DNA of 64,000 bases, taken from positions 160,462,676 to 160,526,675 of the forward strand of contig NC_072792.1 of NCBI RefSeq assembly GCF_028583425.1, read 5' to 3'. Below, piece after piece: positions 6,989-61,125 of this stretch. Numbering within the stretch: position 1 is the first letter of the stretch; each line of letters opens with the position of its first letter. Below the pieces are notes generated by a model. It was not told where the DNA came from. It saw only the letters and a list, made by a program, of their open reading frames with translations, and did no database searches. The position numbers and the translations under genes are program-made. This DNA comes from Eublepharis macularius. Its lineage: Eukaryota; Chordata; Lepidosauria; Squamata; Eublepharidae.

Positions 6989-7243
6989 CAGGGCTTTTTT
7001 TCAGCTGGAATGCGGTGGAAAGGAGTTCCGGAACCACTTGAAAATGGTCACATGGCTGGTGGCCCCTCCCCCTGATCTCCAGACAGAGGGGAGTCTAGAT
7101 TGCCCTCCGCGCATGGCATGGAGGGCAATCTAAATTCCTCCTCTGTCTGGAGATCAGGGGGCGGGGCCACCAGCCATGTGACCATTTTCTCCGAGGGCAA
7201 CCCACTGAGTTCCACCACCTCTTTTCCCAGAAAAAAAGCCCTG
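6989..7243. mobile_element. hAT-type hairpin MITE, copy 2
   Basis: Same family as 5503-5762. A perfect 8-bp duplication AGGATAGG lies at 6981-6988 and 7244-7251. The internal hairpin arms (7041-7110 against 7118-7186) are nearly perfect. Confidence 0.93.
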
Positions 7244-10249: not shown

Positions 10250-10463
10250 ATAGTAAAGAGTCCAGTAGCACCTTTAAGACTAACCAACTTTATTGTAGCA
10301 TAACCTTTCAAGAACCACAGTTCTCTTCCTCAGATGCATCGTCAGATGCTATACTACAAATAAAGCTATGCTACAATAAAGTTGGTTAGATTTAAAGGTG
10401 CTACTGGACTCTTTACTATTTTGCAACTACAGACTAACATGGCTAACTCCTCTGGATCTATGA
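10250..10463. mobile_element. Palindromic Penelope-like insertion, family 2, with hammerhead core
   Basis: A perfect 12-bp duplication, CCATTGATCTTT, flanks it (10238-10249 and 10464-10475). The left arm (- sense) starts AGTAAAGAGTCCAGTAGCAC. The right arm is its inverse, ending GTGCTACTGGACTCTTTACT, and then extends about 43 nt further. On the - strand 10339-10298 holds GCAT-CTGAGGA, stem II GAGAAC/GUUCUU, GAAA, then GGTT-ATGC. This matches a minimal type I hammerhead ribozyme with a stem I of GCAU/AUGC. Assignment to Penelope-like elements is inference. Confidence 0.75.
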
Positions 10464-15804: not shown

Positions 15805-15934
15805 GGGGCCAAACTACAAGCGACGAATGACACTTGAATGGCAAGTGTATTTCTCCCTGTTCACTTGCCCTCCACTTGCGCTCCACTTGATCCACTTGCC
15901 GTTCAAGTGTCATTTGTCACTTGTAGCTTGGCCC
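15805..15934. mobile_element. Palindromic MITE (GGGCCAAGCTACAAGTGAC family), copy 1
   Basis: Ends GGGGCCAAACTACAAGCGAC and GTCACTTGTAGCTTGGCCC are inverted repeats. The interior carries GAATGACACTTGAATGGCAAG and its inverse. The family recurs at 58462-58590 and, as a half, at 23876-23952. Confidence 0.8.
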
Positions 15935-17940: not shown

Positions 17941-19500
17941 TATTACGACTAATATAGTAATATTATAGTAGCATTAGTACTCTCAAACTGCAATGCACAC
18001 ACAGTTAGAAATAAGCCCCGTTCATCTTAGTGAAACATATTTACACTAAAGATATACAGGACTAGCTGTTAATCACTTTGTCTGTGGCTTGCCTGGATCT
18101 TATATATTCAGGTCTTTACCTGGGGGTCCTGAAAAGTTAAATGAAGGCATGAAAATCTATACTGCTCAGAGATCAATTCAATGAAGTGATTTGCTGCTCA
18201 AAACATTTTTTAAAAACAGTAGCGCAACCCATAGGGAACTGCAGGATCTTGGAACCGAGGAAAACTCAGTTGTGTTGCCTCCATCTACTAAAATTAGCAC
18301 AAGAACATTGTGAAGGCTTTCAGTGGGAAATAAGTATGGCCCAGAATAGCCTTAGAAAAATAGAAAATCCAATGGGAGTCTTCTAAACTGCAGTTTACAA
18401 TCATAAAGTTCTATGAGGGGGCACCATTTCAGGCTTTGCTGATGAATATTGAAGATTTCAATGATGGGGGACAAGATTCCTAGCAAAATGTTAAACGGCA
18501 CCCCCACCCCCCCACCCCCGCTCATTTGATGTGTTTTTTAATCTTTGGGACTAGCAAACTTTTGCGGAGGAAATCAGACATGATCAGAAAACCATATGTA
18601 TATGAGGGGGGCGGGGGAGAAAGAAAGAGAGATCATTTCTTTTAAACAATCTAAATGCTAGCCCTTCGTTCTCTCAGTGGTTCTTCCCAAAAGAAAACAG
18701 AGAGATGCCATCATTACAATAATTAGCACCTTACTCTCTAACCTATATGGATTAGAGTATAATATTTAATGCAGGCTAGTCAGCTATGATTAAAATTCTT
18801 TGTGTGTATCTGATCTTTGCTGCCTCAGTGTTATATTTCAAAAAAGCTTGGATGAAGCTCTCAAAATGGGCAAGTCTTTTTAAAAATGTGCTTAATAAGA
18901 ACATTGAGACCAAAAAATGAAAAAGAATTAATTTACTGTCACATCCACTTTTTCAGCGGAAGTATTAGCCTTTAAGCCAATTGACAGACAGAACCTTTTA
19001 AAAAGTCTGTATCAGCACTTGGGGAGGGGAGGGGTGTGCATACAGCTGGTCAGGTGATATGTTGGCACAGTTCTGATGAAGATTTGTTCCTTTGCTGACA
19101 TACTAGCAGGGAAGAGATCCTCCAGTTTTCTTTTGGCAAAGATAAGCACAAGGAACTTGAAAAGAGCCCAAAATCTAATATGGCAGAGGGTTATAGTATA
19201 TGGGGAGTTGCCTTCAACAGAGCAAGGCCATTGGTCAGCCTACTTCAACACTATCTGTTGGTAGTAGGTTGCCACAGACTCGTCTTCCCCAGCCCTGATA
19301 CCTGAGAACCTTTAAGCAATGGTGCCAGGTACCGAACATTTAAAGTACAACCTCTTTCTTTGATCTATTTCCCCAGCCTTTTTAAGCAGCTCCCCAAGTT
19401 GCTGAAAAAATAATACAATTGGATTTAAAGAAAGTTTATGTATTCCTATACACAAACTACTGCACAGTCACCCACACAAATATGGAACAAATATTTATTT

Positions 19501-19779
19501 ATATTGTCGAAGGCTTTCACAGCCAGAGAATGATGGCTGTTGTGGGTTTTCCGGGCTGTATAGCCGTGGTCTTGGCATTGTAGTTCCTGACGTTTCTCCA
19601 GCAGCTGTGGCTGGCATCTTCAGAGGTGTAGCACCAAAAGACAGAGATCTCTGACACTGAGAGATCTCTGTCTTTTGGTGCTACACCTTTGAAGATGCCA
19701 GTCACAGCTGCTGGAGAAACGTCAGGAACTACAATGCCAAGACCACGGCAATACAGCCCGGAAAACCCACAACAACCAT
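19501..19779. mobile_element. Palindromic Penelope-like insertion, family 1, copy A
   Basis: A perfect 13-bp duplication, CAAATATTTATTT, flanks it (19488-19500 and 19780-19792). The left arm starts TTGTCGAAGGCTTTCACAGC. The arms, about 120 bp each, are near-perfect inverted copies around AGAGATCTCTGACACTGAGAG. The right arm stops at ACCCACAACAACC, about 32 nt short of the left arm's end. The - strand arm holds a hammerhead-like core: CTGAAGA at 19617-19623 and GAAACGTC at 19589-19596. It interrupts a reversed SINE tail. Confidence 0.85.
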
Positions 19780-19930
19780 CAAATATTTATTTGTTTATGC
19801 CCTGCATTTCTCTCCAAAGGGGACCCACAGTGGCAAACCATATTGTTCTCCTCTCCTCAGTTTATCCTGACAATAACCCCATGTGTGCTTCCATGGCAGA
19901 ATGGGGATTCTATTTAGTTACATCATATTG
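19780..19930 (-). mobile_element. Sauria-type SINE remnant, reversed
   Basis: TATTTATTTGTTTATGCCCTG, TCTCCAAAGGGGACCCACAG and CTCCTCTCCTCAGTTTATCC are the reversed SINE tail. The tRNA head is lost. Copy A of the palindrome inserted in its A/T-rich end. Confidence 0.7.
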
Positions 19931-23875: not shown

Positions 23876-23952
23876 AGTGAACAGGGAGGAATACATGTGA
23901 GTCTGTTCACTTGCCATTCAAGTGTCATTCGTCACTTGTAGCTTGGCCCTGA
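23876..23952. mobile_element. Half of a palindromic MITE (GGGCCAAGCTACAAGTGAC family)
   Basis: AGTGAACAGGGAGGAATACA and TTCAAGTGTCATTCGTCACT then TGTAGCTTGGCCC match the right half of 58462-58590. It abuts the MITE ending at 23869. Confidence 0.75.
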
Positions 23953-24234
23953 GTTTCACTCGCTGCAGCCTGAGTATACTAACCATCTCTAGGATCATAC
24001 TTGAGTAAACTACCCACTTCTTCTCCTGTATAAGCCTAGGCTTCTCACATTATTTCTGTGCTATGGAACGGCTGTGGTTCCCACACTGTTATGTTAACAT
24101 AAGAACTGCTACCGAGATCTTAAATTGTCCTGTGCTGTGAAAGGTCACAAATATGGTATTAGACCTTCCTTGTAGTGGAAGCTGCATGATTTGGCTGCAT
24201 TTGCAGAACTGTTTCTGAGTCACATATAGACAGT

Positions 24235-24496
24235 CAGGGCTTTTTTTTCTGGGAAAAGAGGTGGTGGAACTCAGTGGGTTGCCCTTGGAGAAAATGGTCA
24301 CATGGCTGGTGGCCCCGCCCCCTGATCTCCAGGCAGAGGGGAGTTTAGATTGCCCATCATGCCGCTCCAGTGGCGCAGAGAGCAATCTAAACTCCCCTCT
24401 GCCTGGAGATCAGGGGGAGGGGCCACCAGCCATGTGACCATTTTCAAGAGGTTCCGGAACTCCGTTCCACCGCGTTCCAGCTGAAAAAAAGCCCTG
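24235..24496. mobile_element. hAT-type hairpin MITE, copy 3
   Basis: Ends CAGGGCTTTTTTTTCTGGG and CAGCTGAAAAAAAGCCCTG. The 8-bp duplication is TAGACAGT (24227-24234) versus CAGACAGT (24497-24504). The internal hairpin is the same as in copies 1 and 2. Confidence 0.92.
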
Positions 24497-28891: not shown

Positions 28892-28903
28892 TATGGTAGA
28901 CAC

Positions 28904-29006
28904 TGTATTGTCGAAGGCTTTCACGGCCGGAGAACGATGGTTGTTGTGGGTTTTCCGGGCTGTATTGCCGTGGCACGGCAATACAGCACGGAAAACCCAC
29001 AACAAC
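28904..29006. mobile_element. Palindromic Penelope-like insertion, family 1, copy B (shortest)
   Basis: A perfect 12-bp duplication, TATGGTAGACAC (28892-28903 and 29007-29018). The left arm starts TGTATTGTCGAAGGC and runs to GTATTGCCGTG. After one base the right arm returns CACGGCAATACAGC and ends CCACAACAAC. The centre is an almost loop-free perfect palindrome. It is too short to contain the ribozyme core. Confidence 0.88.
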
Positions 29007-29018
29007 TATGGTAGACAC

Positions 29019-31805: not shown

Positions 31806-31808
31806 TCT

Positions 31809-32014
31809 GAGAGCCAAACTACAAGTGATGCCTTACACAGGTTGGACACTTGTCAACTTCCCCCAAGTTTTGATGGGAAATGTAAGCGCCCTGGTTTTAC
31901 AGCTTGGCTCTCCATTACAGCTGCAAGACCAGGATGCCTGCATTTCCCATCAAAACTTGAGGGAAGCTGACAAGTGTCCAACCTGTGTCAGGCGTCACTT
32001 GTAGCTTGGCTCTG
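31809..32014. mobile_element. Palindromic MITE related to the GGGCCAAGCTACAAGTGAC family
   Basis: Ends AGAGCCAAACTACAAGTGA and TCACTTGTAGCTTGGCTCT. The inner inverted repeat contains TTCCCATCAAAACTTG and its inverse. Longer and different inside from the 130-bp family but with nearly the same termini. Confidence 0.8.
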
Positions 32015-32215
32015 AGGAAGCTGGATTCTGGATGGATTTCCTCCAGGCCATATTGCCCGGGGATCCTGGAGGTTTTTTGCCTTCCTCTGGGAATAGATTA
32101 GGGGTCATTGGGGAAGGAGGTGGGGAGATAGTTGTGAATTTTCAGCATTGTGCAGGAAGCTGGACTAGATTACCCTTGAAGTCCTGCCCAGCTCTGTGTT
32201 TCTATTGACCAAATT
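32014..32215 (+). mobile_element. CR1 LINE 3' UTR fragment
   Basis: GGGATCCTGGAGGTTTTTTG, GTTGTGAATTTTCAGCATTG and GCTGGACTAGATTACCCTTG parallel 8580-8720. It abuts the MITE end at 32014. Confidence 0.75.
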
Positions 32216-38000: not shown

Positions 38001-41000
38001 GCATAGCTGTGCAAACAGAGCAGTGCCACCTGGTGGATGAGCTGGCACTGACAAGTAAAAAAAACAAGCCGTATAAGGCTTCAATTTATGATCTAAGGAT
38101 TCTCAAATATTTATAAAGGTTTTGACCATATTTAAAAACATATTAAAAATGTATCAGATGAACTTTGCAAACTGTTTTATTTTGCTGTCTGTGATGTCTC
38201 AAGATAACTTCATGCCAGTCTTCCAGGGGCTAATCTTTGACTAGCCAAGGACCAAGGAGATACCTGGGTTCCATCTCCCCATTCTACGATGAAGCTGACT
38301 GGGTGACCTTGGTCTGTCACTTTCTCTCAGGCGAACCTACTTCACAGGATTGCCGCAAGGATACAATGGGGGCAAGGGTAAAACCCTGTATGCTGCCCTG
38401 ACCTCCCTGCAGGAAGGGAAGGGGAAAAATGTGATAGTCAGATGTAAACTATAAATGGAGACCTTATTCTGCTATGAATGTAGGCAACTGATGCCTGCCT
38501 GTGAAATGGATTTTTGCCCAGGCACTAATCTTTATTGCAACAAATGTCAATCCTTTATCAAGTTTCATTATTCAACAGAGGTGATGGTTTTGTATTTTAT
38601 ATATTACATACTTTGAGCTTTACCACTGTCTGCTCTGCTTGTCAACCCCCAAGCCCCATCCAGTTGTGCTCTTTAATGGTGGGCCAATTACTGAATGAAC
38701 AGTTCTGCCTCCTATCAAAGGAAGCAACGGCAAGAGAGATCATCCCCCTTTTTTGCAAACTGTACCCATAATAGGATTTATAACAAAAGTTATACTCTGC
38801 CTTTCTCCCTGATGGGGATCCAAAGTGTCTCACACTGTTCTCCAGTCCTCCATCATCACAACAACCACCCTGTGAAGAAAGTCTGGCTGACAATGTGTGA
38901 GTGGCCAAAGGCCTATCAGCAGCCTTCAGCGGCTGACAGCTGAACTAGACGAAACGAATTACCTGAGGCTATGCGAGTGTTTAGAATCAAGTCTGTTCCT
39001 ACCTACCTGTGTCCATTTCACCCCAGGTGAACACATGTCCTGTAGCCCTAGTCTGTGCATGTGTCAGGTAACTGGTGTAGTCATGGTTGCAAGTGTCCAT
39101 GGCCATAATCAGCGAGTCACCATTGCAGAGTGTCAGTTTTGAGCAGCTTCCTCTTCCTTAAACCTCTTTTTGCCCTTAGATCCGGCTTACACCCAAACTG
39201 TTTTGCTTTTAATCTGGCATGTTTTTAAATTCTCCCGTTTTCTAGTTGACACAGTCGCCTCCCTACTCCTCCTTCCCCCTTAACGTCCTCCTCCTCCTCT
39301 CCATGCAGTGTCTTCTATCGGGTAAGGAGGAGGTGGGAAGAAAGATTGTGGCAACACAATTAAGCATCTGAGGAAAAGTTCAGAAACATGCTTGATACAC
39401 GAACCTGAAAAGGATGGGGTGTGTGTGTGGGGGGGTACACATTCTCGTTTGGCTCAGCAATACAGAGCAAACTGGGTAAAATTTGGCCATTGTTTCCAAT
39501 GGGAAATGTGATTCCGGGCTTTCCTGGGGTCTGGGGGAGCATTTTAGGATTGAATTTTACCAAATTTTCTGGGGAACCACTCCTAGCTGTTCTCTACAGA
39601 CTTCCCAAGTTTCATGAAGATTGGATTTCGGGAGGCCATTTTATAGGCCCCCAAAGAAGGTGCCACCAGCCATTTCCAATCTCCATTGTTCCCTATGGGG
39701 AAAACTAGGGGAGCTATCTAGGGGGCTGGGGTGGCATTTTGCAAGCAAAATCCACAGAATTTGCACAGGACCTACTCCTGTACTCTGAAGACCTCCCCCC
39801 CCCCCCAAGTTTCAGAGAGATTGGACTTTGGGGAAGGCATCATCTATGGGTTTCTGCAGTGCTGTCAGTTTCTCTCCACAATAGGAAAAAAATGGGGTGG
39901 CTGGAGGCACCTTCTTTGGGGGGCCATTAAACGGATCCTCAAGGTCCAATCTCCTTGAAACTTGGGGGATATTTAGAGGAATGTTAGCAGTAGGTTCCCT
40001 GAAGATTTTGTAGATTTATTTTGCAAAATGCCACCTCCCATCCCCCTGGATATCCCCCATAGTTTTCCCCATAGGGAATAATGGAGATTGGAGGTGGCTG
40101 GGAAAAAGCAGGCAGGAAAGTGTTGATTCTGGTTGACAGCAAGAAATGCTGCCATGGCTCCCAAAATGGGGACTACCTGCCCCCCTTTGCATAGATGCCC
40201 CCCCTTCCTGGCGAGCTGAGCTGCAAGATCTCAGCAGAGGTGTGGAACCCCTGTTTTTAGCACCCCCCAGGAAACCCGGCAGTTCCCCCCCCCAATACAT
40301 CCAATTGAATAAACAAGTCTCCCTCTCAGAAAAGCTGCAGAGGAAGGTTTGAACATGTGCGAAGAGAAGGTGCATCATGGGATACCATCTCTCGTCTGGG
40401 AGAAATGGGGAAGAAACACATGCAAGTCCAAGCACGGGACTGAATGCAGATCGAGTGTAGTGTGGCAACAGTGTGTGAGTGAACAGGAAAGCAACGGGGA
40501 AACACATGTAAGTGCTTTCACGTGTTGCACATGTGTAATTTGTCTTGTGTAGTTTAGCTCTGAGTGAGAATTTCTACCTGTATCTCCCCGATCCACCTCT
40601 GACTTACCACATGGGCTCTTTTAAGCCAGGGAAATGATTAACCCCCTTTGTATTGTAACAGAGAGGTTATTTTCCTCCCTCTCTGTAGAGTTTGTGCTGC
40701 CTGAACTTTTCTGGCTTCTCATGAGTAAACTTTTGCTTTCATTGAAAATAGCAGAGGAATGTTGTGGAGCTAACTTGTGTCAAGATTCATTCATTCATTC
40801 AGGCACCCACCCACCCACAGTCTACCTTTCTCACTGAGCCTCAAGGCGGATTACATAGTGTGAGATTAGGACAATCAATATCAAGGACATTTCCATAAAC
40901 CATGTCATAGGGTAAATAAATGCAAGTTTACAAAGACATAGCATTAACAAGAATCCAATACAGAGTTGAAGAAATGCTGAAACAGAGTATAAGCAATTCT

Positions 41001-43231
41001 AGGACTGTATTGTCGAAGGCTTTCACGGCCGGAGAACGATGGTTGTTGTGGGTTTTCCGGGCTGTATTGCCGTGGTCTTGGCATTGTAGTTCCTGACGTT
41101 TCGCCAGCAGTTGTGGCTGGCATCTTCTGAGGCATCTACACCTCTGAAGATGCCAGCCACAGCTGCTGGCGAAATGTCAGGAACTACAATGCCAAGACCA
41201 CGGCAATACAGCCCGGAAAACCCACAACAACCATAATTCTAGGACTGACATTAGACAACATAGAACTAGCCAGTAGGGTGCAATTCAACTTCATTTTTGG
41301 CACTGAAAATTCCTACCATCATCCTGAAGCTGGGGGCCAATTTTGAGACTTCTAGCTTTATTTCTGGATGAGTTATGCCTGCCACAGACATGTGAGCTTC
41401 CCTGGCAAATGGAAGGGGAAGTGGTTCTGGTGGTAACTTGGGCCATGATATTCTGATTCCCTTCGTTTTGGGCACTGCAACTCCATCATAATTCTGAAGC
41501 TAGGGACAAATTTAAGGTATGTTGGTGTCCTGTCTCCTTCTTTCCCTTCTGCTGGCACCTTGAGCTCAAACATACCCTTGTGTAAGTAACAGGTCAGGTC
41601 CTTGTGGAGTCTAATCACCTCTACAATGGACCCCAACCTAGGCTGGAATTCCCATCTGACATTTGGTGTAGTTGGCAGGATTGACTAGGTGTTTACAGGA
41701 TGGGAAAGGGGAAGGATTTTTTGAGGCTTGGTGCAACTAAGAGGGATTGTGTTTGGTTGGGAGCTTGGGGAAGAGTCTGAAGAGGATGGGTGGATGACTG
41801 GATGCCATCTAGTGCAGCTGCATCACCTGGCCAGTTCCAAGAGCCATTCTTGAATGCAAGAGTGCGTGGCAGAACAGCCAATACCCTAGGGAATGTTATG
41901 GGAATGTATGAATGTGCAGGATAAAATTGTTAATAGAGATAAATTTGGCAAAAGTGGTCTTAGACTCAGTGGCCTAGACTCAGCAGGGAGTGGCCTGGGT
42001 GGACCTGAGGAGAAAGGGACAAGGGGAGAATCGGCTAAATCCAAGTTTAGAGATCTGCATGCAGCAGTATCATTTTTCAAAAGATAAAGGGGTCCCCAGG
42101 TACAGGTAAGGATTCGTGTCTAGGAGATGGGGTTTTAAAGGAAAGAAAGCCCATATCCTTTTGGGAGATGGATCTGGAATTACTGGTAAAATCACCTTGG
42201 GAAGAAAATGCAGTGAAGGATTGTAGTTCATTAGAAGAGGTTAAAGAGGAATGTATAACAAGTATAGTGGGAAACTCTGGTCCTCACCATAGGCTCACGT
42301 TTCGGCAGTAGGAATTTTGGTTTTCCTGACTGCCCACCATGTGTATATTTCACAATGACATTTGAAGAGTTTCTCTCAAGTGGCAATATCCATCACTTAA
42401 CAGATGCATCTATTTTTTTTGCTGTATGTTGGTCATCACTCCCAGCAAAAGCCAAAATTAGCCCAAAGAAGGAAACAACCAATGTGAAAATAGCTACGGT
42501 TTGTACAACAGATCACCTGCAGTGATTATTTAAGCAGCACAACAACTGCATCACACATGCAGCATACACAATACTACACACACTTACAGAAGGTTTGCTG
42601 AAAATGGGATAACGTTGGAGCCTCTGGAGCAACGTTGTAGAAGTGTGTTTTCAGGGCGCCGCTCACAAGCAGGTTGTACGCAAGGTCTGTGATATTAATG
42701 CCAACGATAGCAAAAGAGTAGCTGCAAGAAATACAGAGCAGAGATTCCTCGTATTTAAAAAAGCACGTCTCTAGCCCTCTAAACCAAAAAAAGGAAAGAA
42801 CTAGCAGATAATAGCAACAGATCATTATGACGTTTTTGCACTACATTATTCTGTCAGTTATTTTTTTGGCAGTGAACGGGGAAAAATAGAGGCTGTGGGA
42901 ATTGAGGCAAGGAGAAGGGTGGTAATGTGAGTAGAACCTTTAAAAATTTGCACATTCCTGTCCATAAGACATACAGAGACAATCTTTCCAAAAGGACTGG
43001 GGAACACACAGGAGCAAGATGAATAGAGGATGAAATCATATGTAGGGGTGTGCACCAAAAAAAAAAAATCCGGTAAATCTGAACTGGGAATAACAACCCA
43101 GAGGAAAAAATTGGTATTTCCTGAATACCGAATTGATAATTTGGTTTGATTTAGTAATATAGCAGAAATTCTGTAAAATTCAGCCATTGTTTCCTATGGG
43201 AAAATCAATCCGGGGGATATCCAGTGGGCTG

Positions 43232-49200: not shown

Positions 49201-52200
49201 ACAAAATAAGCAGACCTCCTCTTCTGTAAGCTGCTTTTTCAAGGGCACAGAGGAGAAATCAAACAGCTACCTAAATACTGAGAACTGCAATCTTGAAAGC
49301 AATACTTTCAGCAGAGAGTGAGAGGGGGGGGGGGTGCTAGGAACAAGCCATTTTGTTTTCCCAAACTATTTCAAATTCTGGGTTTTAGAAGTCTGGGCAA
49401 CCCAGCATCTGAGAGAATACCAAGCCATAGACACACACACATGAAGAATAACACAAAAACACTTCAGCTAATTCTTTTAAATTTAAGTGCTATTTCTGTA
49501 TTCACTTTGTATTTACGTTGGAAAAACATTTTTTTTGTGTGTCTTTATAAAGGTGATGTGATCTGCTCTCACTGCAAGATTTATCTAGTCTAATACTTTC
49601 TTTCTGGCACTATTATACAGGATCCCTCTTTCTCGGTCTCCCCCCCCCCTGGAAAATCACATGCAATTACCCACTGTCAGTATTCAGCATTTCATTTTCA
49701 CACTCTAAACACAAAGGCCACATGTGGCTACTACAGTTAGGGGCCACTGATATAACAGACCTCCTCCTCAAATGGTTCTCTCTCTTCTCACACACCCATC
49801 TAGCAACCAGCAGTCACCTTGCAGTAGCGAGTTCCACAAGTTATTTGTGGATATTGTTTTATTTAGTTCATCCAACACAGTTTGCTTTCTGCCGATAAAA
49901 CTGAGATGCTCATTCCAAGAAAAGAGCAAAGCTAACCTCTCCTGGCAGCTGCTCACTGCTCAATTTAATTAAGTTACAGTTTAATGTGACATTGTCTTAA
50001 CAGACATATTGTGGTTTGACATCCCTCCAGAGCCATTTGTTTTTTGCCTGTACAAAGTGTTGCATCTTGTGCAAGCAGTAAGCGCCCAGCTTAGAGAAGC
50101 ATGGTTTGCAATGGAGGAATGTGCTGTGCAAGCAGATTCCAGTCACTGGTCCTGCCTTTGATCTGCCTTTAAAGGCTGCTGCACACAGGAACTGGTGTGG
50201 GCTGACAAAGCCAAAGGGCTGGAGAACAAAAGCAGAGAAACAACAGCTCCCAGATTCAACTGGGGGCCTGGGTTGCAGGCGATGCGGGGGAAGCGAGTGG
50301 GGAGATGGCCTGGTGGTCGCCGTGATGTGGAGGGGTGGGGAATGACCAGGGGCTAGGGGAGCACGTCCATGCACAGCCAGTGCAGGCCTTTGGTCTGGGA
50401 AGCTGGCCCATGCCCCTTAGCACTTGGCTCGGGGCGGTATCCCACCAGCCCTCCCTTTTGTCACAACTTTGGAGTGAGTAGATGGCGTATTGGGCATTGG
50501 ACACTGATCCGTTTGGGGGGGAAACAGGGCCTTCAGGCTCAGTTTCCCTATTGTGGGGATCCCCATAAGGGGTCTGGGAGTGAGGAATGGCTGGTGAATG
50601 GTCAGTTGGGGGCTGTCAGTCCGCCTCACTCCCAGGAGGCAGGGGATAATTCACACAGGGGTGTGTACCCACATGGCATCCCAATGGCTGTCATCCCATG
50701 GTCCCCCCCATCAGGGGTTTGAAGGGGCGTGTGGGTCATTGGCTTGGCAGTCGGGTCAGCTGATGCTCGGATCAGTGCAATATGCACGCCTTTGCTCCCT
50801 GAGCTGTAATCTCAATAAAGTTGTGGTCTCTTTACCTCCAGCACTGTGTCCATGTGTTTTTGTCACCGTGCCCCCTCCCTGCTTTCCTCCCCCACTTAGC
50901 ACTCGCCTGCAAATGCCTGTAAACTGTGACTTGCTTGCTGTACACTGGAAATGCAAACCATGGTTTGGCATGATGCCTGAACTGAGCCACTATCTCTTCT
51001 CCATAAAAGTCCATGGGAATATGCACTGTAGCGATTCATGCTCTCCCCTCTGGCCATTTAGGGTCAGCTCAAAGCACTTTCCTTGTACACATATGCATTG
51101 GGAAATTTATGGAGATTTGTGGGGAGCGGAAGCAACAGGGACATAACCTCTATATCACACCACAGAATCTGCCCACCAAAGCTGCCATTTCCTCCAGGGG
51201 AACCGATCCCTATCGTCTGCAGATCAACCCCATCTTGAGATTGGTAACCCTAAGCAGTCCCATCACTGCTGGCTATGTACTGACAATGGCAAAATGCAAT
51301 ACAAGAATAGAGTGATTCTTGTACTGATAGGGCTAGAAGCAGTCTGCATCATTTGAAGCTGAATCCACCTTAAGTCTCAGCAAGCCAGGCAGACTATAAA
51401 AGAAGCCAAGGAGCAAATTTTACAGCAGCTGGTGGGGGGCGTGGGGGGGGGAAGCCGCGCTGATCCTGGGAATTGCTCAGTATCTGGCTGTACAAAGGGA
51501 TGTTTCACATGAGCAAAGTGACTGAGGATGGTCAGAGACCGTTTGCGTGCACTGGAGTGGTACCGCAAGAAAGGGAACCTGGACTGACAGCATCTGACTA
51601 AGAGAGCTGTGGCTCTCGAGAGCTTATGCTACAATAAAGTTGGTTAGTCTTAAAGGTGCTACTGGACTCTTTACTACTTCTGAAGACAGAGATTGAGAGA
51701 GCCAGGCACACTTCCCTGGGAGGCTATTCCATAATTGTGGGGCTGCCACCAAAAAAAACCCCTCCTTGTGTACCCACCAACTGAGCTTCCTTGGTTGAGG
51801 GGATCTTAACTAGAGATGGGCACAAAACGAACCATGGAACAAAATTCCATACAGAATGACCAGTTCATTTGCACCGAAACAAACAAAATTTTCCAGCCGT
51901 TCCATGGACAGTTCAGAGTGTAACAGACCCCACGCCGGTTTCAGCCCATCTGCTGAACCCAGCGCAGGGTCTGTGAAACTGACAGCCCCTTTCTCCTGCT
52001 GCCCGGGCTGTCAGTTTTACAGACCCCACGCTGGAACCGGTGCAGGGTCTGTGAAACTGACAGCCTGGGCAGCAGGAGAAAGGGGCTGTCAGTTTCACAG
52101 ACCCCACGCAGGTTCCAGCATGGAGTCTGTAAAACTGACAGCCCCTTTCTCCTGCCACTCTGGCAGCAGGAGAAAGAAGCTGTCAGTTTCATAGACCCCA

Positions 52201-55200
52201 TGCTGGGTTCAGCCCATCGGCTGAAACTGGCATGGGGGTCTGTGAAACTGATAGCCCCGTTCTCCTGCTGCCCGGCAGCAGAAGAAAGGGGCTGTCTGTT
52301 TCACATGCCCCCCACTGGCTTCAGCAGCCGGTGCGGGGCGGTTGAAATGCCATGAACCACACAATGGGAAAAGGTCGGAAGTTCGTGGTTCGAGGTTCCG
52401 TGGAATGCTACGAACCATGAATCACGTGGTTCGGGTTTTTTTTGGGGTGGTGGTGGTGGTTCGTGCCTATGTCTAATCTGAACTCCTGGACAGGAACATA
52501 TGGGAGATATAAGGGAGGAACATCAATAAGATGGTTGACTTCCTGTGCTGTCATTCTCATCTGCAACTTGTTTACTTATGCAGGGATGATTTGAGCTACA
52601 CACACCCCTCCCCCTTCAACTCTGCTCACTGAAGACCAACCAAGTCTTTATTAGCTGAGTTGGTTCAAGACAACAGCAACCTTAAACTCTAGCTAATGTT
52701 CAAAACTAATGTTTGGTGCCAAGAACAAGCTTTTGAGTTACACAGGGCTACTCTTCAGGCATAAAAGAAAAAACAAAGTTGATGTTACAAAGCGGATACC
52801 TAGTGCCTTAATAAAGTACAGTGAGTTTTAACATAAGAAAGGTCTCATTTAACAGGAATCAATGGATTGGAAGGGGCCGGGCTGGAGATTCAGAGGAGCG
52901 AGTTAACACTATGGAATTACTAACAGTCTATGTTCAGATATATGAAAAGAGGGGAAAAGAGCCTGTGATTACCCAGGATCATTTTTTGCTACTTTTAACA
53001 GACCTCTATCTACTGATATGCCCTACAGCAGGCCATCTAATTTGACCATCAAGGAACCTAACTGACTCCTGTCTCAGAATAGGCTACTGCACAAGTCAAG
53101 CCTTTTGCTGAATAAACTTGGGTTTATTAAATGGTGCTTGTAAATACAGACGACGACTCTAACGTGGTTTGATTACTTACCTTCAGAAGCATTTCTTCGT
53201 GCCGGGGATCCTCGGAATCATAGGGCTCCCGGCGTAGTTTTTCAACCTCTGCAATCAAATTCCTGTACCCTACAATCTGTAGGAGGCAGGCCTGCAGAGA
53301 TACACCGAGCCTGGCGGGAAGAGGAAACAGCAGCAGCAAGTTAAATCCCCATACCTGGCAACTGGAACTCTGCATGATTGACAGTGCCTCCACAGGGAAT
53401 ATACCTTTTCACCAAAGAGAAAAAAGTGCATTCATCTAGGCAAATATATGCCATGACATTTTACAATCTGCTAGGGCTCCTAGAATCAGGCTCTGTAGCT
53501 CATTTATGCTGTAGTGCATATGACAGGAAAGAAGGGGAGAAAGATTTGGCACCATCTCTCGCTGTAGACATGTTATTAAAAAAAAAATCTCCCTTTGAGA
53601 AAGGAACGGCCTTCATCACTGTCCTCCAGCCAAATTCTCCCTTTTTAGTGGAGCTGGGCCCCTTCCCTCAAACCCCAATGCAGAGCAAATTGCTGGGAGG
53701 TGAGTGAAAAACCTGCTTTGTGGCAAGGAAGGGTCATGATTAAACTTCCCCAGGGGCTGGGGGGCTCAGAAGAGAACTAAGACCATACCTGATGCCTACT
53801 AAGCCTGGATACTTGCATTCTAAGTATGTGGGGAGGCCAGATAAGTTGTAGCAGTTTGGAAATGTACTCTGCATGTGCTCAGAGGCATTTTTCTTTCACT
53901 GATTCTGGGACACAGCCCTGGAATTAAAACAGATGACAGGGTTGATCCCAGTACAAACAATGGCTCAGGCAGGGCACCATTTTCTTCGTGGGTTGGGCTG
54001 TTTTGTTTTTTAAATTCAAACAAGATACATGCATGAGACTTGGAAGAGCAGCTGTGAGGAAACTAGAAAAGATCCTTAAAGATAAAGATGTCTTTCTGGG
54101 AACCAAGATTAAGATAATCCAAACTAAGGTATTCCCTATTCCTATGTATGGATGTGAAAATTGGACAGTGAAGAAAGCTGACAGGAAGAAAACTGATTCA
54201 CCTGAAATGTGGTGCTGGAGGAGAGTTTTGCGGATACCATGGATGGCCAAAAAGACAAATAAGTGGGTAGAAATCAAGCCTGAATTCTCCCTAGAAGCTA
54301 AAATAACAAAACTAAGGCTATCGTATTTCAATCATATCATGAGAAGACAAGGTTCTCTGAAAAAGTCAGTAATGTTAGGAAAAGTGGAAGGCAGTAGGAA
54401 AAGAGGAAGACCCAAAATGAAATGGTTTGACTCAATAATAAGAAGCTACATCCTCCAGTTTGCAGGACTTGAGTAGGTCTGTTAATGATAGGATGTTTTG
54501 GAGATCTTTCATTCATAGGGTTGCCATAGGTTGGAGGCGATGGCACATAACAGATAACACATACATGCATAGCAAGAGGCAAGAGCTCCTTCTTGCCTCT
54601 GAACTATGGACATAAGGGTGGGGGAATGTAGCTTGAAATAGAGAGATGTAACCCATGAGGTGATAGCTAGTGATAAAAATGGGACTGAAGAAAAACAAAA
54701 CAGCTTGAGGATAGGGGAGTTCTGTCATGTTGGCTGTAGAAGGATTTAGGCAGGATTCTGGCAAAGGGGCTGCTGGATTTTACACATTGGTTGGAATTTT
54801 ATCAGTCAAAACGATGACTGCAGGCAGGCTGCTAGTTTCTTTGGCTCCTGATTTAAAGCCTCGAACATCAACCTTCACCCCATTATCCTTTTGTTCAAAA
54901 ACTGTAGAAGTGTACTTCAGCTTTTCCTCACTAGGGAATAAGGGGGTTAAGTGCTCTGGCTGCAATCTTAAGAGGATGTTCTTTGCAACTCAGTAAGGCT
55001 GTCTTCAGAGTTAACACGTACAGAAGTGGGCTCGTCTGTCACCTTCTAAAGTAGCTGGCATTTGCGGGTGAAGTTTTGTCGCTAAAAAAGTGCGTGCTCT
55101 GAGGTGTGAAGCATATGACATAAAAATCACATGCAGGCTGACAGTCAAATCCTGGCGCCAGACCCATACACGAAGGAGAAGCAAAGACAACGAGAATGCC

Positions 55201-58200: not shown

Positions 58201-61125
58201 TTCAAATCATTGGGGGGGGGGCAATAATTCAGAAGAAATAGTTTCTTTTGCCATATCTGGCACAGAAATGCAACGTTTCATCTGCATTTAAATGAAACAT
58301 TGAAGGGCAACTAGGAAAGCTTGGCTTTGTCTCTGGGAAGTAACCTCCCTTTTATAACAGGGGAAAACATAAGCAAAGTGAGGGGGGAGCCCCAACTAAA
58401 CCTCAACAGGCCATCTGTATTATAATCAGAAAAATGAGACCAAGCCGCTAACGGATTCTGAGGGCCAAGCTACAAGTGACAAATGACACTTGAACGGCAA
58501 GTGGATTGAGTGGAGCGCAAGTGGAGGGCAAGTGAACAGGGAGAAATACACTTGCCGTTCAAGTGTCATTCGTCACTTGTAGCTTGGCCCTCAGAGTATC
58601 CCCCCCAAGCTTTCTTTCCTTGGCTGTTATCACTTTGTAGGCACCAAAACAACAGCCACACCAAAAAAAAATTCAGTCTTCTCTTTAAAATAAAACCAGC
58701 TATTTCCCAGATACAGATGTTCTCACAGCAAGATACGTTTCATGCAAATGCATATCAGGATATCTGACGGGAGTTGTGACTCATGAAAGCTCATATTTTA
58801 ATAGACGTTGTTCATCTTTAAGGTGCCACCAGACTTTTATTTTATGAAATGTGCAAATGACAGCCTAAGGCCTGGTTCACACATGCGGTGGAATGAGGTG
58901 TCAAAGACCAGGGAGGGACCACAGAAGGGACTGCATAACTTTGGCCTGCAGGAGGAGGATCACATTTTGGAAAAAACAAACAGGAGTCTAGTGGCACCTT
59001 AAAGACTAAGAAAAGTTTATTCCAGCATAAACTATTGTGTACTAGTGCCCGCTTCATCAGATTCAATGTAGTGGGTGTTTATTAGGCAGACATTTACATA
59101 CAAAGTACACCCGTTTGGTGTAGTGGTTAAGAGCGGCAGGACTCTTAATCTGGAGAGCCAGGTTTGATTCCCCACTCCTCCGCTTGAAGCCAGCTGCGTG
59201 ACCTTGGGTCAGACACAGCTCTTCGGAGATCTCTCAGCCCCACCCACCTCACAGGGTGACTGTCGTGAGGATAATAACACACTTTGTAAACTGCTCTAAG
59301 TGGGCATTAAGTTGTCTTGAAGGGTGGTATATAAATCTATCATCATCATCATACAGGATTAAGGAGATGTACATTGCAGGAAGGCACAAAATGAACTCTA
59401 GCAGTGCAATCCTATGCAAAATTGCACCATTCTACACCCAATGACTTCAATGAATTTACCAGGGTGTCATTCTCTTTAGGATTACACTGCAAGTCACCAC
59501 TGTCAGCAAAAAAAAGGGAGGGCAGTAAGGGGAGAGACTGGAGCATGAAACTGCTTCTTAACACCCTATCTTTGCCACCCTCCCCAGGGTTGAAGAAAGC
59601 TTTTGGCTTCCTTCACTATTATATGTGTTTGCTAACTGAGTATTAACTGGCTGGAGATGGACAATTACCGCTATTATGAATGGTCTGGGTAATTTACTTG
59701 ATTATATATGAATTTTACATAACTGTATCTCACCCCATACTTCCTGTGTTTCACAGTTCCCTGATTCAGCATTTTTAAAAAACCTCACACAAATATGTCT
59801 GCTCATGTAGAGCCCACTACATTGCATCTGAGGAAGTGAACCGTAGTCCACAAAAGCTTATGCTGGAATAAAATGTTAATGCTGCCAGATTCCTGTTTGT
59901 TTTGTGCTGCAGTGGATTAATGCAGCAGCAGCTCCTTTGGAACTGAATTTTGGAATGCTTCCAAAACTCCTTGCAAAAGAACAACTAGTCCAGCCAATCC
60001 TATGACAGACCATGACAAGTTAACACTCCCTCTAGGCAGAGATGTGGCTGCAGATCCTAAAACACTTGTGTGTTTTTTGTTCATTCCAGCATGTTTCAAA
60101 TGGCTAAGATAGATACGTGGGCAAGAAGCCCCGTGAAACTTCTTGAGGGCTTAGAAATTTGAGGGGGGCTTATTTGTAAGACTGCTTAATCTGTTAATAC
60201 TAGAGATGGGCACAAACCAGGAAAAAACCCCGAACCATGCGGTTCATGGTTTGTCACGTTTCACGAACCACGAATTTTCATGAACCTGTCCCGGTTCACG
60301 AACCGGTTCATTTGGTTCGTGAAAACATCCCCTCCAGGCCAGCAAATAGTCACTTCGGGGTCAGCAGACGGTCTGCAGAAAGCCCACCCCCCATTGCCTA
60401 GGAAACTGATTGATCGGCGCCAAGCTGTCTGCAGTGACAAACCGAAAAATGAACCAAATGAATCGGCCTAAAGTTCGTGACAGTTCATCAGAAATGGGCT
60501 CTGACAAACTGCTGGTTCGTGAACCATGAACCGACTCAGTTCGTGCCGAACTTTGGTTCGTATTTCGGTTCATGCCCATCTCTAGTTAATACCAATGGGA
60601 AGACAATTGGAATAATATGAGACAGAAAACTATGTCATAAACAGACTTTTACTTACCTTATTTTTTGAACTCCTCAGAGATGTTTCTGTCAAGAAAACAT
60701 TTTGAAACATGTTGAGGATTTTAAGATTTGATTTTATTTATAAAATGTATATGCTGCCTCTACAGAGAACACAGCATAAAAATGGTTAAAAACTACAAAA
60801 AAAGTTAAGAGCATAAAAACAGCGCAAAACATTTAGTAAATGATTCTCATAAAGCACAGTTTTCAGGTTAACAAAGACAAAATAATATTATAGTGTACGT
60901 AGGTGGGAGGAGAATAAAACAGCTGTGACTCTCAACAAAAATTAAGGCAAAAATCAAGGGCTGCTTGGCAATCCCTTACCAATTTTCATAGTCCTGCCAG
61001 CTCCAGGCTTTGTGCTGTAGCAGATCCGTTGTAACTCACACCGTCCTGTTAGTTTCCTCACTACAAATTTCAGGCAACGCCACAAGCACTTGCAATAGAA
61101 GTAGAGGCACACCTGGACGAGCATC
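34903..61125 (-). CDS. ELMOD1: ELMO domain-containing protein 1, ten coding exons, first codons missing
   Basis: ELMOD proteins are GTPase-activating proteins for ARF-family small GTPases (the ELMOD1 GAP acts on ARL2 and ARFs, in trafficking and hair-cell function). Ten exons on the - strand, at 60980-61125, 60657-60685, 56822-56919, 53181-53310, 48719-48852, 48136-48204, 47851-47874, 44461-44511, 42588-42721 and 34903-35075, join without any frame break. They give 328 codons and a TAG stop. All introns start GT and end AG with matching phases. The family member has 334 residues, so six N-terminal codons are lacking. The exon at 60980-61125 starts in a split codon just before an internal Met, so a short upstream exon is expected beyond the window. 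The diagnostic WCEIGFQGDDPKTDFRG motif is intact. The C-terminus NPDMALCPHFAASESLINL identifies ELMOD1, not ELMOD2 or ELMOD3. Confidence 0.97.
35270..37210 (-). mobile_element. APE-type LINE, truncated, endonuclease end and reverse transcriptase
   Basis: Read on -, 37210-36830 encodes the end of an AP endonuclease (NGSTHGNYPGKF, RPSMTDYMLVNGPF, then DEDHFPLLVHI, equivalent to the catalytic SDH box). 36592-36140 encodes the RT start with LKAGKAPGVDFIPPEFLK. 36160-35890, in a shifted frame, encodes RPITLLSVISKLYASRLLDK and KQAGFREGRCSTDHCM. Frameshifts and a large internal deletion separate this from a 3' end at 35270-35560 shared with 5195, 26703 and 40800. That sharing suggests all are one family. 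The clade is not resolved. It has decayed. Confidence 0.85.
37440..37560 (+). mobile_element. Degenerate family 2 (ribozyme-type) repeat
   Basis: TTGATGAAGGGGAGCTTGAC then CTCAAAAGCTTATACTCTGG keeps the order of the hammerhead segment but the core is mutated (TTGATGA, CAAA). Confidence 0.5.
37748..37952 (-). mobile_element. tRNA-Ala-type SINE, reversed
   Basis: Read on -, AGCTCAGTGGGAGAACATC (box A) and GAGTTCAGTCCCCCTGGC (box B) are followed by GGAGATGATACCGACC and CTGACCCATTAGAAGGCAGC. The tRNA-like part has lost canonical pairing, so it is a SINE, not a tRNA gene. Confidence 0.8.
38240..38465 (+). mobile_element. Sauria-type SINE
   Basis: GGGTTCCATCTCCCCATTC, GACTGGGTGACCTTGGTC and CTACTTCACAGGATTGCCGC follow the SINE order. 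The tail ends in a purine-rich GGAAGGGAAGGGG. Diverged. Confidence 0.65.
38775..38900 (-). mobile_element. Sauria-type SINE fragment, reversed
   Basis: TATACTCTGCCTTTCTCCCT, GATGGGGATCCAAAGTG and CACAACAACCACCCTGTGAA are the reversed tail and middle. Confidence 0.7.
39440..40090. mobile_element. hAT-like element fragment with inverted modules
   Basis: CAAGTTTCATGAAGATTGG (about 39607) and CAAGTTTCAGAGAGATTGG (about 39806) are direct modules. CTCCTTGAAACTTGGGGG (39950) is the inverse. CCATTGTTTCCAATGGGAA and CCATAGGGAATAATGG flank them. The same modules occur at 9700-10003 and 43043-43925. Termini are lost. Confidence 0.6.
40800..41270 (-). mobile_element. LINE 3' end split by a palindromic insertion
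   Basis: 40815-41006 matches the 3' end at 35290 and 5230 (CTCACTGAGCCTCAAGGCGG, CCAATACAGAGTTGAAGAAA). It resumes after 41247. The interruption is the 41007-41234 element with its duplication. Confidence 0.75.
41007..41234. mobile_element. Palindromic Penelope-like insertion, family 1, copy C
   Basis: A perfect 12-bp duplication, AATTCTAGGACT (40995-41006 and 41235-41246). The left arm starts GTATTGTCGAAGGC. The arms are about 100 bp and the right arm ends CCCACAACAACC. On +, CCT-CTGAAGA (41141-41150), stem II GCCAGC/GCTGGC (41152-41157, 41165-41170), GAAA (41171-41174), TGTC and AGG (41179-41181) make a full hammerhead-like core, with cleavage predicted after 41178. Confidence 0.9.
42588..42721 (-). 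CDS. ELMOD1: ELMOD1 coding exon, residues 233-278
   Basis: It encodes YSFAIVGINITDLAYNLLVS, then GALKTHFYNVAPEAPTLSHF and QQTF, with a split Gly before and a split Cys (T/GC) after. This is the most conserved C-terminal half of the ELMO domain. The acceptor is TTTCTTGCAG and the donor GTAAGT. Confidence 0.97.
43043..43925. mobile_element. hAT-like element (TAGGGGTGTGCA family) with long inverted repeat
   Basis: It begins TAGGGGTGTGCACC. The left half (CCATTGTTTCCTATGGG, CAAGTTTCATTAAGATTGG) is mirrored by the right half (CTTCATGAAACTTGGAGAG, TTTCCCCACAGGACACAATGG). A (GT)n microsatellite lies inside. The right terminus is not preserved. Confidence 0.65.
43234..43276 (+). repeat. (GT)n microsatellite
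   Basis: About 21 GT units inside the hAT-like element, one strand giving a Val-Cys open frame. Confidence 0.95.
44461..44511 (-). CDS. ELMOD1: ELMOD1 coding exon, residues 216-233
   Basis: It encodes KCSKAEWEKKKFDKAI between a split Ser and a split Gly codon. SKAEWEKK..DKAIG is a conserved ELMO-domain block. The acceptor is TTTTTCAG and the donor GTAAGC. The residue after the first Lys is Cys where mammals have Phe. Confidence 0.94.
44512..47850 (-). other. ELMOD1 intron, no recognisable repeat
   Basis: The sequence is unique-looking and largely AT-rich. A more GC-balanced part at 46250-47520 gives chance open frames of 110-190 codons on both strands, with no recognisable domain. The microexon at 47851-47874 borders it. 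Nothing else is supportable here. Confidence 0.5.
47851..47874 (-). CDS. ELMOD1: ELMOD1 24-nt microexon, residues 208-216
   Basis: Only 24 nt, encoding EVTKEDL between two split codons (Arg before, Ser after). It is needed to join the flanking exons in the family order ...PK-R-(D/E)(I/V)TKE-... and both phases match. The acceptor is preceded by a long pyrimidine tract (47880-47910, read on the - strand) and the donor is GTATTC. Length divisible by three means skipping would remove eight residues and keep the frame. Confidence 0.88.
48136..48204 (-). CDS. ELMOD1: ELMOD1 coding exon, residues 186-208
   Basis: It encodes YLAERDASAAQQILSDSLQP then KY, ending in a split Arg codon (AG/G). The acceptor is TTTTCCCCGATAG and the donor GTAACT. 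It is part of the ELMO domain. It does not appear as a simple ORF because it is only 69 nt. Confidence 0.93.
48719..48852 (-). CDS. ELMOD1: ELMOD1 coding exon with GAP motif, residues 141-185
   Basis: This exon carries the ELMOD GAP signature W..xGFQGxDPxTDFRGxG, seen as WCEIGFQGDDPKTDFRGMG. The Arg of FRG is residue 174 when six missing N-terminal codons are assumed, the position of the catalytic arginine in the family. The exon ends in a split Leu codon (TT/G). The acceptor is TTCTGTAG and the donor GTAAGTAT. Confidence 0.97.
51590..51682 (+). mobile_element. Family 2 (ribozyme-type) repeat, core mutated
   Basis: GCAT-CTGACTA, a perfect stem II (AGAGAGC/GCTCTC), GAGA, GCTT-ATGC, then AATAAAGTTGGTTAGTC and GGTGCTACTGGACTC. 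Two core substitutions (CTGACTA and GAGA) should abolish cleavage. Confidence 0.75.
51811..52475. mobile_element. Non-autonomous hAT element (TAGAGATGGGCA family) with a hairpin cluster
   Basis: Ends TAGAGATGGGCACAAA and TTCGTGCCTATGTCTA. The 8-bp duplication is ATCTTAAC (51803-51810) versus ATCTGAAC (52476-52483). The interior (51960-52310) alternates direct and inverted copies of a unit containing CTGTGAAACTGACAGCCC and CTTTCTCCTGCTGCC, forming at least three strong hairpins. No transposase. Confidence 0.88.
53181..53310 (-). CDS. ELMOD1: ELMOD1 coding exon, residues 97-140
   Basis: It encodes LGVSLQACLLQIVGYRNLIA, then EVEKLRREPYDSEDPRHEEM and LLK. This leads into the ELMO domain. The acceptor is CCCGCCAG and the donor GTAAGT. 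Relative to mammals the visible changes are conservative. Confidence 0.97.
54010..54566 (+). mobile_element. Bov-B (RTE) LINE, 3' part
   Basis: A frame to 54476 encodes the C-terminal part of RTE ORF2: KVFPIPMYGCENWTVKKADR, WCWRRVLRIPW, YFNHIMRRQGSLKKSVMLGK and RKRGRPKMKWFD. The 3' tail GGGTTGCCATAGGTTGGAGG then CGATGGCACATAACA is the Bov-B end. 5'-truncated. The N-terminal Met-Gly-Trp of the open frame is flanking sequence. Confidence 0.92.
56625..56700 (+). mobile_element. Sauria-type SINE fragment
   Basis: AACCCACCTCACAGGGTGG then GGAGGATAAAATGGAGGAGG is the conserved SINE middle. Both ends are missing. Confidence 0.55.
56822..56919 (-). CDS. ELMOD1: ELMOD1 coding exon, residues 65-97
   Basis: It encodes LLQSSISVHPDAIEKT followed by IDAIMDLKRINPDVNP, and ends inside a Gln codon (CA/G). 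The acceptor is a T-rich tract ending TTCCAG and the donor is GTAAGT. The split codon is completed by the G that opens the next exon at 53310. Confidence 0.96.
58462..58590. mobile_element. Palindromic MITE (GGGCCAAGCTACAAGTGAC family), copy 2
   Basis: Ends GGGCCAAGCTACAAGTGAC and GTCACTTGTAGCTTGGCCC, extendable to CTGAG...CTCAG (58459-58593). Inverted GACACTTGAACGGCAAGTG arms surround GGAGCGCAAGTGGAGG. It aligns, inverted, with 15805-15934. Confidence 0.88.
58748..58845 (+). mobile_element. Family 2 (ribozyme-type) repeat
   Basis: ATAT-CTGACGG, stem II GAGT/ACTC, GAAA, GCTC-ATAT, then AATAGACGTTGTTCATC and AAGGTGCCACCAGAC. The stem I sequence differs from other copies but still pairs (ATAT with ATAT). 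One core base is altered (CTGACGG). Confidence 0.65.
58975..59090 (-). mobile_element. Family 2 (ribozyme-type) repeat, reversed
   Basis: Read on -, CCACTACATTGAATCTGATG then AAGCGGGCACTAGTACAC and TTTATGCTGGAATAAAC, ending AAGGTGCCACTAGACTCC. It has an intact CTGATGA, but the GAAA is lost. Confidence 0.7.
59111..59353 (+). mobile_element. tRNA-derived SINE with (CAT)n tail
   Basis: TTTGGTGTAGTGGTTAAGAG (box A) and GGTTTGATTCCCC (box B), then CCCACCTCACAGGGTGACTG, GGTGGTATATAAATC and CATCATCATCAT. Sister copy of 22518-22797. Confidence 0.92.
59402..59489. mobile_element. 88-bp hairpin MITE, second copy
   Basis: Ends CAGTGCAATCCTATGCA and TAGGATTACACTG, same centre and size as 6037-6124. Confidence 0.75.
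59803..59915 (+). mobile_element. Family 2 (ribozyme-type) repeat
   Basis: GCAT-CTGAGGA, then AGTGAACCGTAGTCCAC, AAAAGCTT-ATGC and GGAATAAAATGTTAATG. The first base of GAAA is changed to A. Together with 58975-59090 it forms a wide inverted pair. Confidence 0.68.
60201..60584. mobile_element. Non-autonomous hAT element (TAGAGATGGGCA family)
   Basis: Ends TAGAGATGGGCACAAACC and CATGCCCATCTCTA with a perfect 8-bp duplication GTTAATAC (60193-60200 and 60585-60592). The interior holds many GGTTCATGGTT/CACGAACC-type inverted segments. Same termini as 51811-52475 but a different interior. Confidence 0.93.
60657..60685 (-). CDS. ELMOD1: ELMOD1 29-nt microexon, residues 55-64
   Basis: It encodes the rest of a Glu codon, then TSLRSSKNK, matching the ETSLR..SK.K linker of ELMOD1. 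The acceptor ends CTGTTC... read as GACAG (60686-60690, - strand) and the donor is GTAAGT. At 29 nt it is not a multiple of three, so it must be constitutive or skipping would break the frame. Confidence 0.93.
60980..61125 (-). CDS. ELMOD1: ELMOD1 coding exon, residues 7-54
   Basis: This exon encodes the hydrophobic/basic N-terminal segment, from MLVQVCLYFYCK to GAGRTMKI. The acceptor is TTATCTTTGGCAG at 61126-61138 on the - strand and the donor is GTAAGG just below 60980. The exon opens with one base (G) completing the last codon of a preceding exon. Translation could start at this exon's first Met only if transcription began here. The open phase argues instead for an upstream coding exon not seen in the remaining 2.9 kb. 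Confidence 0.95.

What the first reader, a model, noticed from the sequence alone, without database searches (positions are those of the whole stretch)
41007..41234. Palindromic retro-insertions with one arm always about 32 nt shorter
Three family 1 copies (19501-19779, 28904-29006, 41007-41234) each have a perfect 12-13 bp target duplication. Each is an inverted dimer whose left arm begins TATTGTCGAAGG and whose right arm stops at ACAACAACC, lacking the same terminal 32 nt or so. Arm length varies (about 33 to 120 bp) but the asymmetry does not. This suggests one mechanism, such as target-primed synthesis of a snap-back or dimeric template, and not chance rearrangement.
Basis: partly seen in the sequence, partly recalled or inferred. 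Interest (0 to 1): 0.75.

Follow-up and report, generated by a model that had tools for sequence, protein, structure and literature searches.

The report
One-tailed inverted Penelope retrotransposon copies
These are short, mirror-image leftovers of a Penelope-like jumping element, a known kind of insertion; the surprise is that the two halves usually begin at two different fixed points and appear to be copied from the same RNA, which hints at how the element inserts itself.

Summary
In detail: three inverted dimers with 12-13 bp target duplications, one arm ending at ACAACAAC(C), the other about 32 nt longer.

The anatomy fits 5'-truncated Penelope-like elements (PLEs) and is published in kind: a ~31-bp optional tail on one inverted pseudo-LTR (PMC3846280), and two internal reverse-transcription starts with both strands cleaved and extended for the Anolis PLE PAc (PMC11167929). 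Our outer ends (mostly +115 to +119 from the ATG) overlap PAc's +111-118 site.

Added here:
- One tail per dimer in 19 of 19 letter-checked dimers not chosen for tails (15 of one family, 4 of a second). Genome-wide, by exact pattern: 1,240 dimers of one size class, about 881-907 one-tailed, 5 with two full tails. Independent choice allows at most 50% one-tailed.
- Arms of one copy share private variants (7 of 9 two-carrier variants; 0.14 expected).
- The untailed arm reaches further 5' in 21 of 33 copies, against snap-back.
- Both nicks show a similar T|NTT preference.

Best reading: both nicked strands prime on one RNA, one at each start site, and the cDNA ends are joined.

Not shown: an RT/GIY-YIG ORF for this family. 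An untailed/untailed minority (at most 328-341 of 1,240) is not excluded.

The parts
19488..19500 (.). target duplication, left copy (CAAATATTTATTT)
19501..19779 (-). family A inverted dimer; tailed antisense arm on the left, untailed sense arm on the right; centre about 19653-19659
19780..19792 (.). target duplication, right copy
28892..28903 (.). target duplication, left copy (TATGGTAGACAC)
28904..29006 (-). family A inverted dimer with the shortest arms; tailed left, untailed right
29007..29018 (.). target duplication, right copy
40995..41007 (.). target duplication, left copy (AATTCTAGGACTG)
41008..41040 (-). tail: stretch between the outer and the inner start site, read antisense
41041..41132 (-). 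rest of the tailed (antisense) arm, with a hammerhead-like motif on the minus strand (core recalled; no Rfam hit)
41133..41140 (.). junction between the two cDNAs, with short inserted bases
41141..41234 (+). untailed sense arm, ending ACAACAACCAT (inner start site)
41235..41247 (.). target duplication, right copy
10250..10463 (+). family B inverted dimer: untailed antisense arm left (10250-10307), tailed sense arm right (arm 10362-10419, tail 10420-10463); TSD CCATTGATCTTT

Best explanation
The three features are 5'-truncated insertions of a Penelope-like retroelement (Poseidon type, close to PAc of Anolis). The element's endonuclease nicks both target strands about 12-13 nt apart at weak T|NTT sites. 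Both free 3' ends prime reverse transcription inside the same element RNA. One starts at the outer AC-rich site (mostly +115 to +119 from the ORF start), the other at the inner AC-rich site (mostly +82 to +86), probably because two protein subunits occupy one RNA and each takes one site. The two antisense cDNAs meet head to head and their 3' ends are joined through 0-2 nt of pairing, often with small inserts. This leaves an inverted dimer with one tailed arm, one untailed arm and a target duplication. Shown here: the structures, the one-tail rule, shared variants, junctions and nick preference. Inferred: the one-RNA, two-subunit geometry and the joining step. From print: the two start sites and two-strand cleavage and extension, shown in vitro for PAc.
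For: Ends: (one search prints positions one higher); PAc starts at +111-118, and its authors equate the tail with the stretch between its two starts. One tail per dimer: 33 of 33 distinct dimers (29 of them chosen by a one-tailed query); 10 of 10 chosen by a query without tail; L073/L074; 4 of 4 dimers of family B outside the L040 array. Genome-wide exact patterns: 1,240 dimers of one spacing class, 917 tail counts, 18 with two tail stubs, 5 with two full tails. Same template: 7 of 9 two-carrier variants sit in both arms of one copy, and 75C sits in both arms of 4 copies and nowhere else among the arms compared; 0 of 1,000 permutations. Against snap-back: 21 of 33. T-rich preference at both nicks.
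Against: No RT/GIY-YIG ORF of this family was linked. No Rfam hammerhead hit. 328-341 of 1,240 dimers, and 10 of the first 50 listed, lack the exact tail signature; decayed tails and untailed/untailed dimers cannot be told apart. Doubly tailed places exist: 5 full, 18 stubs. None of the 5 is among the 40 scored, so that double-tailed query (40 of 40 one-tailed) was not exhaustive and is a weaker control than it looks. L040 (family B array, left out of the count) holds a head-to-head pair, 1581/1712, with no tail on either arm. Some counted dimers may be duplicated segments (C1). The inner-site hairpin fold is weak (z -1.3 and -1.9). PAc authors saw no start-site difference between strands. Arm conversion, or two RNAs of one locus, could also give shared variants.
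Confidence: 0.7

Rival explanations
1. Snap-back or self-priming: one cDNA folds back on itself and copies its own sequence, then the copy stops at the inner site.
For: Inverted arms with shared variants; self-priming is the reading preferred in PMC3846280 (passages). 11 of 33 junctions, where the tailed arm reaches further, would allow it.
Against: If the tailed arm is first, the second arm cannot reach further 5', yet it does in 21 of 33. If the untailed arm is first, the second cannot gain a tail. A fixed stop at the inner site is unexplained.
Confidence: 0.08
2. Two-ended priming on two different RNA molecules, each choosing a start site independently.
For: Both strands are cleaved and extended in PAc; copies without a partner use both ends: tailed L071, L077; untailed L032, L079, L081, L083.
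Against: Independence caps one-tailed dimers at 50%; seen: 19 of 19 letter-checked and about 881-907 of 1,240 by exact pattern. Arms share private variants.
Confidence: 0.07
3. Two RNAs from the same source locus, packaged together in a dimeric particle whose subunits are forced to different start sites.
For: Explains shared variants and the one-tail rule as well as one RNA does.
Against: Needs strict pairing by locus; nothing here separates it from one RNA.
Confidence: 0.2
4. A palindromic source element is transcribed and re-copied as a unit, so the asymmetry is inherited.
For: Seven junctions recur two or three times, in 16 of 33 copies, and several copies match the 19501 junction.
Against: The copies sharing variant 75C (L008, L016, L021, L023) have four different junctions; inherited dimers would carry arm-specific, not shared, variants.
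Confidence: 0.05

Closest known systems
PAc, Poseidon Penelope-like element of Anolis carolinensis (PMC11167929; main text section read)
   Same: Outer ends overlap its RT start at +111-118; two start sites bounding a tail; its hammerhead cut 26 bp after the start codon agrees with our motif position; both strands cleaved and extended; AT-rich, ATT-preferring targets.
   Different: The section read reports no pairing of the two starts between the arms of inverted copies, no shared-variant test, and no start-site difference by strand.
Penelope elements of Adineta vaga (PMC3846280; passages read)
   Different: Authors favour self-priming on an antisense template; our junctions contradict snap-back in 21 of 33 copies.
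LINE-1 twin priming (abstract starts in a listing only)
   Same: Two target ends prime on the element RNA, giving inverted segments with a TSD.
   Different: As recalled, L1 twin priming gives non-overlapping segments of the RNA; here the two cDNAs overlap almost wholly and start at two fixed internal sites.

Membership tests
Penelope-like elements (Poseidon type) | Telomerase-like RT with GIY-YIG endonuclease ORF | tested here: inconclusive
   78 GIY-YIG matches over the cut-off among 150 scored of 3,593 candidates, open frames up to 722 aa; the one flank read has no family A sequence; RT not searched
Penelope-like elements (Poseidon type) | 5'-truncated copies with a 30-40 bp tail and fixed 3' ends | tested here: met
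Penelope-like elements (Poseidon type) | Short target duplications at AT-rich sites | tested here: met
   TSD of 12-17 nt in 31 and of 8-9 nt in 2 of 33 dimers; TSD 65% AT, 57% AT at 200-400 bases away
Penelope-like elements (Poseidon type) | Hammerhead ribozyme in the pLTR | tested here: inconclusive
   core-like motif (recalled) at the position published for PAc, stem II predicted; no Rfam hammerhead match at gathering threshold or up to E 10
Penelope-like elements (Poseidon type) | Inverted pLTR copies | tested here: met
MITE / foldback DNA transposon | Symmetric terminal inverted repeats reaching both ends | tested here: not met
   one end lacks about 32 nt in 33 of 33 and 10 of 10 dimers

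The most novel reading that the evidence does not exclude
Penelope-type integration runs on an asymmetric complex in which a single RNA feeds both nicked strands, with the two adjacent internal start sites shared out one per strand. The genomic tail is then a record of which strand used which site, and inverted dimers are a normal product, not an accident.
Probability: 0.5. Interest if true: 0.65.

Novelty: new member of a known kind. Interest (0 to 1): 0.45.

Why it matters
How Penelope-like elements integrate is poorly known: the 2024 PAc paper leaves second-strand synthesis and later steps open. More than a thousand short dimers of one size class in one genome act as a natural sequencing experiment. 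They show which start each strand used, that both arms trace to one template, and how the cDNA ends were joined. The one-tail rule turns the optional tail into a testable statement about an asymmetric dimer on one RNA.

Tried and rejected
Snap-back rejected for 21 of 33 junctions. A first junction analysis with gapped alignment suggested 5-6 nt microhomology; the ungapped re-analysis gave 0-2 nt and inserts, so the first was dropped. In one search two copies (L020, L026) had poor anchors; without them the split is 20/10/1 of 31. Chance joins would give 3 nt or more in 5-7%; none of 33 did, and chance for exactly 2 nt was not computed. miRNA matches of the hairpin in Rfam are all below gathering score and only reflect the palindrome. 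GGGCCAAGCTAC palindromes in the window look like a MITE family. Link to a GIY-YIG ORF: 651 nt behind the C3:101997536 frame carries no family A sequence; ORF lists near family B copies were not searched further. Random sampling gave 2 family A copies in 200 kb. The outer-tail pattern meant to bound untailed/untailed dimers did not complete. Partner hits are clipped by a 50-nt scoring flank, so no count of shared junctions is taken from them. Organism: a gecko was guessed from memory and one listing; not tested.

Full report
What was checked. The three copies at 19501-19779, 28904-29006 and 41008-41234 are inverted dimers with target duplications of 13, 12 and 13 bp. In each, one arm starts with TATTGTCGAAGG and the other stops at ACAACAAC(C), about 32 nt short. 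The window lies in a 2.24 Gb genome in 72 contigs; its name is not given.

What it is. Read in sense, the arms run ..CTGAAGATGCCAGCCACAGCTGCTGGCGAAACGTCAGGAACTACAATGCC..CCCACAACAACCATCGTTCTCCGGCCGTGAAAGCCTTCGACAATA. Counting the A of ATG as +1, ACAACAACC ends at +83 and ACAATA at +116. First cDNA bases put most inner ends at +82 to +86 and most outer ends at +115 to +119 (one search prints positions one higher). The published Anolis element PAc starts reverse transcription 111-118 bp into its ORF and has a second start site; the authors equate the tail with the stretch between them. Its hammerhead cut lies 26 bp after the start codon (PMC11167929, main text section read), which agrees with the motif here (core recalled; no Rfam hammerhead hit). 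PMC3846280 (passages) describes a 31-bp tail optionally present on one of two inverted pLTRs, and an inverted pLTR 37 bp shorter. So the object and its asymmetry are known in kind.

How strict the asymmetry is. Of 33 distinct dimers read in full (L002-L030, 3 in the window, L039 from random sampling), 33 have one tailed and one untailed arm. L002-L030 were picked by a query with one tail. A query with two tails returned 40 scored dimers of 339 candidates, all matching one tail only (7 places shared; one, C9:95235470, carries about 10 nt of a second tail). That control is weaker than it looks: the 5 doubly tailed places found later are not among those 40, so its first look was not exhaustive. 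A query without tail gave 40 candidates. I fetched both ends of 10 of its dimers: 10 of 10 are one-tailed. Of its 7 hits without a partner in the table, one (L073/L074) is a one-tailed dimer; L071 and L077 have a tail; L079, L081 and L083 have none; L075 has lost its 3' end. Not chosen by tail: 3 + L039 + 10 + L073/L074 = 15 of 15 in family A.

Copies without a partner. L032, from random sampling, is a single untailed arm with a 14-bp TSD. A 127-nt single-arm query gave 40 candidates, of which 8 show a partner arm within the 50-nt scoring flank. So dimers are not the only product, and their share of all copies is not known.

A second family. Family B, whose core in L010 and L040 reads CTGACGAAGAGAGCTGTGG(C/T)TCTCGAAAGC, is called PLE-like by resemblance and design only. 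Outside the L040 array it has four head-to-head dimers in the held sequence: window 10250-10463, L010 (with an extra inner piece), and two in L038. All four have one tailed and one untailed arm. Exact TSDs of 12, 13 and 12 nt were found in three; L010 shows a similar duplication with a mismatch, read by eye. L040 is a complex array and was left out; it holds both one-tailed and, at 1581/1712, untailed neighbouring pairs. With family A: 19 of 19; the most that independent choice allows is 0.5 to the 19th power.

Genome-wide counts by exact pattern. Tail run-through: 10,550. Dimers with 152-182 nt between the inner motifs: 1,240. The same class with a tail signature on one named side, both strands: 917, in which a two-tailed dimer counts twice. 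Two short tail stubs: 18. Two full 12-nt tails: 5, of which 3 are among the 18. So 881-907 of 1,240 (71-73%) are one-tailed by exact match, although any independent choice of start sites allows at most 50%. The patterns are not quite alike: one search asks for one more G and C. Exact patterns miss decayed tails: the 17-base tail string is intact in 24 of 33 full-length dimers and 4 of 10 fetched tailed ends, so two-tailed dimers may number a few tens. Of the first 50 listed dimers 40 carry the tail signature and 10 do not; I cannot say how many of these are untailed on both sides. Nine of the first listed dimers on C1 have the same 184-bp span and may be duplicated segments.

Same template. 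Over the shared arm region, 9 variants occur in exactly two of up to 66 arms; 7 of the 9 are in both arms of one insertion (0.14 expected, binomial 7e-12). Of 11 variants with three or more carriers, 7 include at least one copy with both arms; the 4 without (positions 22, 26, 52, 53) are all CpG positions in the reference. Variant 75C occurs in 8 arms, the two arms of four copies. Mean difference within a copy is 2.1%, between copies 3.2%; 0 of 1,000 permutations match, also without CpG sites. Arms still differ at other sites, which argues against wholesale conversion after insertion. L051/L052 and L059/L060 also share changes; L055/L056 and L057/L058 each show private ones (by eye).

Junctions. 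The untailed arm reaches further 5' in 21, the tailed in 11, equal in 1 of 33; 20 of the 21 by 5 nt or more. Snap-back requires the tailed arm always to be the longer. Two-nucleotide overlaps occur in 14 of 33, inserts of 1-11 nt in 15; some inserts repeat nearby element sequence (by eye). Seven junctions recur two or three times; cDNA ends cluster, for example at GAAGATG. The 5' end GACACTG of L032 and of the 19501 untailed arm lies about 34 nt after the start of a TATAAA in the upstream sequence (L078), so it may be the RNA start; this is inference.

Target. TSDs are 12-17 nt in 31 and 8-9 nt in 2 of 33. Both nicks show T at -1 (17 and 21 of 33) and T at +2 and +3 (19-22 of 33), against 28% background; +4 is significant on the untailed side only. 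One endonuclease with one weak preference probably cut both strands. L032 lies in a MITE-like repeat whose other copies show the uninterrupted sequence.

Mechanism. Two-ended target priming on one RNA with the two start sites shared out fits these results. The dimeric AlphaFold model of PAc (PMC11167929) offers a physical basis. One RNA against two RNAs of one locus is not separated here.

Novelty. The element type, tail and inverted copies are in print. In what I saw (searches; one paper's main text section, passages of PMC3846280, PMC12910113 and PMC8969392, listings of the rest) I found no statement of the one-start-each rule or of a same-template test; key PLE papers are not held, so priority is not claimed.

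Noticed in passing
window 10250-10463 and 51625-51676: Second PLE-like family (B), one dimer with TSD and one fragment without tail; the dimer has the same one-tailed design.
   Followed up: yes
window 15806-15934, 58457-58595, 23909-23953: Short palindromic MITE-like repeats with GGGCCAAGCTAC ends; L032's element is inserted into one of this family.
   Followed up: partly
window 31807-32016; 24290-24445, 7040-7189, 5557-5710: Further near-perfect palindromes of other repeat families, perhaps DNA transposons (not tested).
   Followed up: no
window 39526-40101 and 51928-52327: Longer imperfect inverted or multiple repeats of unknown nature.
   Followed up: no
G000 C6:43234039-43237868: Two GIY-YIG matches with open frames of 542 and 533 aa in opposite orientation about 3.3 kb apart: possibly a long head-to-head PLE dimer.
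   Followed up: no
L032:9846-9972 and genome: 19 places, L032 included, are 100% identical over 127 nt, so the family was probably active recently.
   Followed up: no
G000 C1:4826656 to 8536606: Nine listed dimers with the same 184-bp span within 3.7 Mb; four start with near-identical letters: perhaps duplicated segments, not independent insertions.
   Followed up: no
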